From Ignavibacteriales bacterium (GTDB lineage: Bacteria; Bacteroidota; Ignavibacteria; Ignavibacteriales; Melioribacteraceae), in NCBI GenBank assembly GCA_026390795.1, contig JAPLFG010000001.1, forward strand, positions 434,001 to 498,000: a stretch of 64,000 nucleotides of DNA, given 5' to 3'. Shown here in pieces: positions 46,738-63,981 of this stretch; position 1 is the first letter of the stretch, and the number at the start of each line of letters is the position of its first letter. The position numbers and the translations under genes are program-made. Under the pieces are notes generated by a model. The model was not told the DNA's origin and did not search any database. It saw only the letters and a program-made list of their open reading frames with translations.

Positions 46738-47000
46738 ACCTAACGGCGATCTTGCTAAAGCGCCCTTCATAATTATTTGTTTTAAGATCAGTTCTGTTTT
46801 ACAAAGCAACTTTGAACTACAAACTTACTCTATCCAGGACGTGAGATAATATCTATTATTTTCTCACAATCAATTTATTACACAAATAATTTTTAGAATA
46901 AATAATGTTTGTTTTTCTATCTCACGTCCAAATACTAAACCCAATAACTATATCTAAAGACTGCGTTATAGACACGGTCGCTTTGAGTTGCGGGTTATAC
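46738..47000 (-). repeat. attC site 2, carrying a 93-bp insertion
   Basis: 263 bp. R'' GTATAAC and R' GTTAGGT in minus-strand reading; inner arms CTAAAGCGCCC and CGGTCGCTTTGAG. Removing the palindrome-ended insert at 46837-46929 leaves 170 bp, the normal length for this array. Confidence 0.8.
46837..46929. mobile_element. 93-bp palindrome-ended mini-element, copy 1
   Basis: Perfect 12-bp terminal inverted repeats GGACGTGAGATA / TATCTCACGTCC enclose an AT-rich centre with an internal CTCACAATC. It interrupts attC site 2. A second copy with the same layout but compensating base changes at the ends is in attC site 9. No coding capacity. It may be a MITE-like element or a structured insertion; no clear target duplication is visible. 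Confidence 0.65.
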
Positions 47001-54449: not shown

Positions 54450-54737
54450 GCCTAACGGCGTTGTGCCTAAGCCGAAGCCCAGAACAACTATGACGCTCTT
54501 GGCAACATCCTTTTTAGTTTTAAAATCAACTTCGTTTTATTCAGGGTGTGAGATAAAAAACCGATTAACTCACAATCCTTGTTCTTCAATAATCTTTTTG
54601 CAATAAGATATTTAGTTTATTTCTATCTCACACCCTAAATCAACTTTTAACAACATACTTACACTGAAAAACTAAACCCAATAACTTTATCAAATGACCG
54701 CATCGTAGATGCGGTCGCTTTGAGTTGCTGGTTATAA
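54450..54737 (-). repeat. attC site 9, carrying the second mini-element
   Basis: 288 bp. R'' TTATAAC, consensus R' GTTAGGC in minus-strand reading. Arms CTAAGCCGAAGCC and GCGGTCGCTTTGAG. Without the insert at 54543-54636 it is 194 bp. Confidence 0.82.
54543..54636. mobile_element. 94-bp palindrome-ended mini-element, copy 2
   Basis: Perfect 13-bp terminal inverted repeats AGGGTGTGAGATA / TATCTCACACCCT around an AT-rich centre with internal CTCACAATC. Same organisation and length as the copy at 46837-46929. Where copy 1 has ACGTGAG/CTCACGT, this has GTGTGAG/CTCACAC, so the ends changed together. It sits at a different place within its attC. Confidence 0.65.
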
Positions 54738-62984: not shown

Positions 62985-63162
62985 GCCTAACAGCGTTGCA
63001 ACTAAAGCGCCGCCCATAACTACTATGACGCTTACGGCAACTACCTTTTTTGTTTTGAAATCAACTTCGTTTTATCAATCAACCTTGAATAACAAACTTA
63101 CTCTGAAAAGCTAAACCCAAAAATATTTTAAAGACGCGGTCGCTTTGAGTTGCGGGTTATAT
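62985..63162 (-). repeat. attC site 16
   Basis: 178 bp. R'' ATATAAC, consensus R' GTTAGGC in minus-strand reading. Arms ACTAAAGCGCCGCCC and GCGGTCGCTTTGAGTTGCGGG. Very similar to sites 2, 9 and 17. Confidence 0.88.
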
Positions 63163-63791: not shown

Positions 63792-63981
63792 ATATAACGG
63801 CGTTGCAACTAAAGCGCCGCCCATAACTACAATGACACTTTTGCAACTACCATATTATTTTAAAATCAGTTCTGTACTGCAAATCAACTTTTAACAATAA
63901 TATTAATCTGAAAAGCTAAACCTTATAACTACATCAAACGAATGCGTCAAAGACGCGGTCGCTTTGAGTTGCGGGTTATGT
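63792..63981 (-). repeat. attC site 17
   Basis: 190 bp. R'' ACATAAC, R' GTTATAT in minus-strand reading. Arms AACTAAAGCGCCGCCC and GCGGTCGCTTTGAGTTGCGGG. The last 19 bases of the window would be the 3' end of a further cassette. Confidence 0.88.

What the first reader, a model, noticed from the sequence alone, without database searches (positions are those of the whole stretch)
46837..46929. Homologous 93-bp palindrome-ended insertions inside two attC sites
Copies at 46837-46929 and 54543-54636 share length, terminal GTGAGATA/TATCTCAC, and internal CTCACAATC, yet differ elsewhere. The end pairs changed together (ACGTGAG/CTCACGT versus GTGTGAG/CTCACAC), so pairing is maintained. They sit at different positions of their host attC, so they inserted separately. 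The internal CTCAC can pair with the left GTGAG as an alternative hairpin. I know no described mini-element confined to attC sites.
Basis: seen in the sequence. Interest (0 to 1): 0.75.

Follow-up and report, generated by a model that had tools for sequence, protein, structure and literature searches.

The report
Tiny mobile hairpins inside attC sites
Short hairpin-forming DNA inserts of about 97 bases, too small to code for an enzyme, sit mostly inside the recombination sites of bacterial gene-collecting arrays in Ignavibacteria and close relatives, and look like miniature mobile elements that use those sites as a landing pad.

Summary
Observation confirmed. Window 46833-46929 and 54540-54635 are copies of one non-coding element with 12-bp perfect inverted ends. 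Both lie inside attC sites, at different positions; insert-free attC sites occur in the same array. The genome holds four copies, all in attC, one of them decayed. I scored 29 copies from searches of up to 391 genomes of the class: 22 in attC or attC remnants (three by reading only), 7 elsewhere. A pattern scan blind to attC gave nine credible matches (a subset of the 29), all in attC. The outer stem pairs in 228 of 228 cells, with double changes at five of 12 positions. No target duplication; the right flank is mostly YAAA. One attC holds two copies. So this is a non-autonomous mobile element strongly concentrated in attC, not confined to it. No parent transposase was found. Nearest kinds are REPINs and archaeal SMR-A repeats; IS1111-attC and group IIC-attC introns fail defining tests. 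Single-strand (HUH/Y1-type) mobilisation in trans seems most likely to me, but is inferred.

The parts
46738..47000 (+). host attC site 1 (R'' ACCTAAC ... GGGTTATAC), 166 nt without the insert
   Evidence: scan; both flanks score above all 300 controls; boundaries set by hand
46833..46929 (+). mini-element copy 1, 97 nt (TCCA tail + inverted-repeat-bounded core 46837-46929)
   Evidence: model R1, 110.1 bits; junction against insert-free attC
46837..46848 (+). left inverted-repeat arm GGACGTGAGATA
46918..46929 (+). right inverted-repeat arm TATCTCACGTCC
46863..46871 (+). internal CTCACAATC (possible partner of the left GTGAG)
   Evidence: only partly kept in the family
54450..54737 (+). host attC site 2 (R'' GCCTAAC ... 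TGGTTATAA), 192 nt without the insert
54540..54635 (+). mini-element copy 2, 96 nt (TTCA tail + core 54544-54635)
   Evidence: (98.2 bits)
54544..54555 (+). left inverted-repeat arm GGGTGTGAGATA
54624..54635 (+). right inverted-repeat arm TATCTCACACCC
62985..63162 (+). insert-free attC of the same type, empty-site control for copy 2
63792..63981 (+). insert-free attC of the same type, empty-site control for copy 1

Best explanation
The segment is a non-autonomous mobile element of about 97 nt whose single strand folds into one hairpin (16-nt inverted ends TTCAGGGCGTGAGATA ... TATCTCACGCCCTAAA in the family consensus, variable middle). It is moved in trans and inserts without target duplication, next to a short YAAA motif, mostly in the central AT-rich part of integron attC sites. 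Shown: the unit, junctions without duplication, several positions, two copies in one attC, strong concentration in attC, and a stem kept by compensatory change. Inferred: that it moves through single-stranded DNA by an HUH/Y1-type (IS200/IS605- or RAYT-like) enzyme. Read on the attC bottom strand, most inserts stand 3' of TTTR and end in TGAA, as such elements stand 3' of a target tetranucleotide; attC bottom strands exposed during cassette recombination or replication would be the landing pad.
For: Own genome: 4 of 4 copies in attC, one of them a decayed attC. Pattern scan of the species-genome collection, blind to attC: 11 matches in 10 stretches, two read as chance inside ORFs, the other 9 in attC, each with at least one flank above all controls. 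All 19 loci with 60 bits or more under model R1 or R2 are in attC or attC remnants. Of 22 attC copies, 10 have both flanks and 7 one flank above every one of 300 control sites. Joined flanks match insert-free attC across the junction in 17 of 22, mostly without a gap there. Right flank YAAA in 18 of 22, TAAA in 16. One attC (L098) carries two copies at different positions. In G139 three copies are 98.8-100% identical while the 100 nt of attC beside them are 88-91%. Stem: 228 of 228 cells paired, 5 pairs with double changes. IS200/IS605 transposition uses ssDNA and neither gains nor loses bases (PMC7923331, passages). REPINs have the same layout of inverted 16-mers, spacer and hairpin (PMC3116915, passages). 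Y1 genes lie on the same contig as a copy in G007 (245 nt away), G005 (about 250 nt from a short non-attC copy) and G006 (about 3 kb), which is suggestive at most.
Against: No Y1 locus with these ends as its own: 33 loci scanned (3 of 3 own hits, 30 of 55 hits in eight genomes); the only match within two mismatches is G007's attC copy, which falls in the same locus. The G005 Y1 gene has no second copy of the ends within its 6.6-kb contig. No exact end (YAGGGCGTGAGATA) around a transposase-sized interior in 164 genomes (exact match only). IS200/IS605 elements have palindromes near their termini, not terminal inverted repeats. Several insert-free homologues do not have TTTR at the site (TATT, TACA, TTAT) and three or four own copies deviate (AAAT, CAAA), so the target rule is not clean. 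Seven of 29 copies lie outside attC. Orientation (18 to 2, two unclear) suggests one strand, but YAAAC is itself 36 to 7 strand-biased in attC middles, and copies are not independent.
Confidence: 0.55

Rival explanations
1. An ordinary MITE of a DDE transposon whose parent is missing from the data. attC sites are over-represented only because they are non-coding, fast-evolving, and exchanged with cassettes.
For: 12-bp (about 16-bp with tails) inverted ends, no ORF, no parent with exact ends in 164 genomes.
Against: No target duplication in 17 empty-site comparisons. All 19 strong loci in attC or attC remnants, although the roughly 30 attC sites read in the own genome make up only some thousands of its 4.08 million bases. 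Ends covary base by base, though ends recognised by one transposase could do that too.
Confidence: 0.17
2. A non-autonomous derivative of an IS110/IS1111-type element, like the IS1111-attC group, guided to attC by a bridge/seekRNA supplied in trans.
For: IS1111 elements have 11-13 bp subterminal inverted repeats; ISKpn4 and ISPst6 target attC (PMC11187229, passages). The left tail outside the repeat makes the ends subterminal here too.
Against: IS1111 terminal extensions are 7 (or 6) and 3 bp and the target is one end of attC; here 4 and 0 (or 4), in the middle of attC, at several sequence-diverse positions. IS110-family genes were not searched for.
Confidence: 0.12
3. Not mobile now: a structural module of some attC lineages, gained a few times and spread by cassette exchange, possibly kept because it changes attC folding or blocks readthrough.
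For: Copies at the same position in different genera. Own copies on C1:480833, C4:140655 and C1:380017 share a site. The insert adds a separate hairpin of about -6 to -17 kcal/mol in ten attC sites.
Against: At least six distinct positions, two copies in one attC, elements more alike than adjoining attC in G139; copies outside attC.
Confidence: 0.1
4. A by-product of the integron integrase: IntI excises and reinserts the folded hairpin at secondary sites.
For: IntI acts on the attC bottom strand (PMC2727003, start of abstract), the strand preferred here; IntI is present in the own genome.
Against: Junctions lack a constant GTT/AAC core (reading). IntI is found in 60 of 164 genomes of the order at E <= 1e-60, the element at E <= 0.01 in 10. 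Copies exist outside attC.
Confidence: 0.06

Closest known systems
REPINs (REP doublets forming hairpins), thought to be mobilised by RAYT (Y1) transposases
   Same: Similar size, conserved 16-mer ends as inverted repeats, variable spacer, full-length ssDNA hairpin, non-autonomous (PMC3116915, passages read).
   Different: Ends are TTYA-G..., not a GTAG-type tag; few copies; concentrated in attC instead of spread through extragenic space; no RAYT/Y1 gene with these ends among the 33 loci scanned.
SMR-A small mobile repeats of Haloquadratum walsbyi (archaea)
   Same: About 110 bp, prominent inverted ends, no target duplication, too short for a transposase, strong preference for palindromic targets, mobiliser called enigmatic (PMC3119063, passages read).
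   Different: SMR-A targets the near-terminal palindromes of IS605-type elements and PATEs; here the targets are integron attC sites in bacteria. I did not compare SMR-A sequences.
IS1111-attC group (ISKpn4, ISPst6)
   Same: Mobile DNA that targets attC; short subterminal inverted repeats (PMC11187229, passages).
   Different: Autonomous IS with DEDD transposase and seekRNA; 7/3-bp extensions; insert at one end of attC.
Group IIC-attC introns
   Same: Target the attC bottom strand as a folded single strand (PMC7923331, passages).
   Different: Ribozyme/reverse-transcriptase elements, most at TTGT/T within R''; this element is a simple 97-nt hairpin in the central region.
IS200/IS605-derived PATEs
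   Same: Transposase-free, no target duplication, flank oligonucleotide as target (PMC3119063, passages).
   Different: PATEs lack terminal inverted repeats; here they are perfect.

Membership tests
REPIN | two conserved 16-mer ends in inverted orientation with a variable spacer | tested here: met
   alignment A3 and pair counts; tails TTCA/TAAA nearly complementary
REPIN | ssDNA hairpin over the whole unit | tested here: met
REPIN | GTAG-type tag at the palindrome | tested here: not met
   the 19 aligned copies begin TTYA, TTAA or TCCA before the stem, not GTAG
REPIN | association with a RAYT gene carrying the same ends | tested here: not met
   33 Y1 loci scanned; the ends occur only in L166, as G007's attC copy near a Y1 gene; 25 of 55 hits were not read
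REPIN | many copies dispersed in extragenic space | tested here: not met
   4 copies in the own genome, at most 8 loci in one genome (G217, nine rows, one locus counted on both strands, one of the short type), mostly in attC
SMR-A small mobile repeat | about 110 bp, inverted ends, no target duplication, no transposase relation | tested here: met
   93-103 nt for uninterrupted full-length copies, junctions, no parent
SMR-A small mobile repeat | insertion into IS605/PATE palindromes | tested here: not met
   hosts are mostly attC sites; G039 lies in another palindrome
SMR-A small mobile repeat | sequence homology to HqIRS42/43/55 | not tested
   sequences not fetched; the paper says the three families lack sequence similarity
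IS1111-attC | DEDD transposase and seekRNA region inside the element | tested here: not met
   the element is 97 nt, too short to code for one
IS1111-attC | terminal extensions of 7 (or 6) and 3 bp; target at one end of attC | tested here: not met
   4-nt left tail; insertion at 0.42-0.75 of attC length in the 10 copies with both boundaries
Group IIC-attC intron | intron RNA with reverse transcriptase, insertion at TTGT/T in R'' | tested here: not met
   length and position; no Rfam family reached its gathering score in the window
IS200/IS605-derived element | no target duplication, fixed tetranucleotide at one flank | tested here: inconclusive
   no duplication; YAAA at the right flank in 18 of 22, but several insert-free homologues lack it
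IS200/IS605-derived element | ends shared with a Y1 element | tested here: not met
   part of the Y1 hits only
DDE MITE | target duplication and a DDE parent with the same ends | tested here: not met
   no duplication; no pair of exact ends around a gene in 164 genomes; DDE genes were not searched for as such

The most novel reading that the evidence does not exclude
A distinct class of miniature hairpin elements, present in at least three families of the class that includes Ignavibacteria, that is specialised on single-stranded attC: it enters the exposed bottom strand of integron recombination sites and travels onward inside cassettes, a parasite of the integron and a bacterial counterpart of the archaeal SMR-A repeats that land in palindromes.
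Probability: 0.45. Interest if true: 0.75.

Novelty: new variant of a known kind. Interest (0 to 1): 0.6.

Why it matters
In the passages read here, the elements described as attC-targeting are large ones (IS1111-type insertion sequences, group II introns). A transposase-less hairpin that lands in the middle of attC would suggest that the folded single strand itself is a target, would give a natural record of how often attC bottom strands are exposed in cells, and would offer a second, independent system in which to solve the enigmatic movement of small hairpin repeats. It also adds a source of length variation of attC sites.

Tried and rejected
Rfam scan of the window: no family at its gathering score. 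A mechanical stem-pairing score for calling attC around each copy did not separate attC from controls and was dropped (most attC copies had p above 0.05); arm profiles worked better. A general palindrome score around the insertion points did not mark the attC copies either; only G039 (0 of 300 controls as high) and G369 (p 0.013) stood out. Minimum-energy folding of whole attC bottom strands was uninformative: pairing of the terminal arms was counted in 1 of 10 cases, with or without insert, so the effect on recombination is unknown. Inner GTGAG/CTCAC hairpin as a conserved structure: not supported. Y1 genes as parent: no shared ends. Viral contigs: one match, read as chance. Plasmids: none. 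The phage collection was not searched. Literature: nine answered searches. No title or abstract beginning in the listings describes a miniature element in attC; one search listed 15 of 87 papers, most subscription papers are not held, and the IS1111-attC paper of Tetu and Holmes 2008 is known to me only from a citation (not held).

Row handling: L093 and L095 were read as chance (inside ORFs, outer bases not complementary). The nine other matches are a subset of the 29 copies, not additional. Not in the 29: three truncated G139 copies at contig edges (beside attC by reading), a right-end remnant in an attC of G005 (L034), and reverse-strand rows of the same loci. G217 C139, G138 and G005 C109 are 62-63 nt short relatives, counted as non-attC. 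The flank identities in the last table are spoiled by end-gap trimming and were not used; only the G139 comparison is. The family, order and class searches used Infernal's stricter filters, and the class search drew 391 genomes from a larger group, so weak copies may be missing.

Full report
What is there. Window positions 46833-46929 and 54540-54635 hold two copies of one element. Each has a left tail (TCCA or TTCA), a 12-bp arm (GGACGTGAGATA or GGGTGTGAGATA), an AT-rich middle, and a right arm that is the exact reverse complement of the left one. Both sit inside attC sites of a cassette array: attC 46738-47000 and attC 54450-54737. The window is G000:C1:434001-498000, and the array runs on to near the end of contig C1 (last attC at 505896 of 506861). 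An integron integrase gene lies at the edge of another contig (C4:274-1311, TIGR02249, 434.7 bits, cut-off 265).

Insertion, not ancestral attC. An alignment of four filled and six insert-free attC sites of the same type shows two different insertion points, and the insert-free sites are continuous across both. Joining the flanks of each copy and searching the fetched DNA gave junction-spanning matches for 17 of 22 attC copies, mostly without a gap at the junction (one-base gaps in G119 and G217_C34a; the matches of G097 are only 71% identical), so about 96-97 nt are gained and nothing is duplicated. For the other five attC copies (G024b, G139a, G217_C87, G217_C431, G217_C337; two of them at contig ends) and the seven copies outside attC no empty site was found.

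How many and where. In the own genome model R1 finds four copies at E 5.7e-13 or better, all in attC; the next distinct hit is at E 4.08. One of the four (C1:380017) sits in a decayed attC: it fails both arm profiles but has two matches to insert-free attC. Matches occur in 7 of 79 genomes of the family at E <= 0.05, 10 of 164 of the order at E <= 0.01 and, with the wider model R2, 11 of 391 drawn from the class at E <= 0.05. A pattern scan of the species-genome collection, which knows nothing of attC, gave 11 matches in 10 stretches; two lie in ORFs of other bacteria and lack outer pairing, and the other nine (Ignavibacteria MAGs, Ignavibacteriales UBA8501, Stygiobacter, and the MAG OSL_B.mb.4) are all in attC. 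Several G handles are the same contigs by length and coordinates (G024, G065, G119, G150, G217); this is an inference, and it means that these nine are among the 29 below. I scored 29 copies: 22 in attC or attC remnants, 7 not. By arm profiles, 10 of the 22 have both flanks above every one of 300 control sites, 7 have one flank, and 5 have neither; of these five, two (own C1:380017, G141) have matches to attC and three (G139a, G217_C431, G217_C337) rest on reading the sequence. None of the seven non-attC copies passes either profile. All 19 loci of 60 bits or more under R1 or R2 are in the attC group; the non-attC ones score 39-49 bits, and three of them are short 62-63 nt forms. Two attC copies (G141, G097) also score below 50 bits, and one (G007) is interrupted and came.

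Mobility. The copies occupy at least six different positions in attC (reading), between 0.42 and 0.75 of its length in the ten with both boundaries. L098 has two copies at different positions in one attC. In G139 three copies in three attC sites are 98.8-100% identical over 84-88 nt, while the 100 nt of attC to their left are 88-91% identical; their right sides are cut off by contig ends and could not be compared. The copy in G007 is itself interrupted by another repeat.

Structure. In 19 aligned copies the outer 12 pairs are formed in 228 of 228 cells; 5 pairs have changes on both sides, 14 cells in all, against a shuffled mean of 2.5. The copies were collected with searches that reward pairing, so the 100% is an upper bound, but the sequence changes themselves are real. 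With the tails, the usual bottom-strand ends are TTTA ... TGAA, which pair with one G-T wobble; on the top strand the same position is a C-A mismatch (reading).

Mechanism. The flank to the right of the insert is YAAA in 18 of 22 attC copies, TAAA in 16. On the bottom strand that reads TTTR followed by the element, which ends in TGAA. Lack of duplication, a short word at one side, and a hairpin-forming unit fit single-strand transposition of the IS200/IS605 or RAYT kind, and attC bottom strands are known single-strand folds. By the tails, 18 copies have one orientation relative to attC, 2 the other and 2 are unclear (p 0.0004 if all were independent, which they are not). This need not mean strand choice, because YAAAC outnumbers GTTTR 36 to 7 in the middles of 24 insert-free attC sites, although YAAA and TTTR are equal, 99 to 98. 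Against the idea: none of 33 Y1 loci has these ends as its own; some insert-free homologues lack TTTR at the site. Y1 genes do lie on the same contigs as copies in G007 (245 nt), G006 (about 3 kb) and G005 (about 250 nt from a 63-nt non-attC copy), but in G005 no second copy of the ends frames the gene. The mobiliser is therefore unknown.

Integrons without it. The integron integrase is found in 60 of 164 genomes of the order at E <= 1e-60, 57 over the cut-off, and the element in 10 at E <= 0.01. So it is an occasional tenant of attC, not a part of it. Some genomes with the element (G005, G006, G024) show no integrase; two of these are incomplete.

Compared with what is known. REPINs share the layout and hairpin but not the tag, dispersal or a linked RAYT with the same ends (PMC3116915 and PMC8266576, passages). 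The closest in behaviour are the SMR-A repeats of Haloquadratum, about 110 bp, inverted ends, no duplication, landing in palindromes of IS605-type elements, with an unexplained mobiliser (PMC3119063, passages). IS1111-attC insertion sequences and group IIC-attC introns also target attC but differ in size, ends and position (PMC11187229 and PMC7923331, passages).

Verdict. A real family of non-autonomous hairpin elements strongly concentrated in attC; new variant of a known kind; mobiliser unproven.

Noticed in passing
L002 (G000:C4:140483-140842) and L003, L078, L113: Some of the same attC sites carry other small G+C-rich palindromes (for example CCCGCGTTCTTTGCGGG, CCCCGCTCTGCGGGG in L002) that are absent from the insert-free relatives aligned: perhaps a second kind of short insertion in attC.
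   Followed up: no
G000:C4:274-1311 (-): Integron integrase at the very edge of contig C4, while the main array runs to the end of contig C1; how they join, and whether the integrase is inverted relative to the array, cannot be told.
   Followed up: partly
L162 / L126 (G007:C102:3620-3860): A copy of the element in attC is itself interrupted by a repeat of about 145 nt (TCATTCTGAACGGAACGAAGTGAAGAATCT...), and a Y1 transposase gene lies about 245 nt further on.
   Followed up: partly
L197:6146-7258 (G217:C139): A 63-nt relative lies at the junction of a PAS/histidine-kinase-like ORF and an ORF with a sigma-54 DNA-binding domain (PF04552); the end of that ORF looks like a GIY-YIG domain by eye only.
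   Followed up: partly
L119:3557-3619 and L156, L160: A short 62-63 nt subfamily (GGGGGTGAGATA...TATCTCACCCCC), 94% identical between G005 and G217 of different families, lies outside attC and may be nearer to the mobiliser.
   Followed up: partly
L120:2300-2900 (G039): A copy lies between the arms of another palindromic repeat (TTAAACCTGTTAAGTAAT), which has a second, element-free partial copy 400 nt away.
   Followed up: partly
order of the window's genome: Integron integrases are very common here: 60 of 164 genomes at E <= 1e-60.
   Followed up: yes
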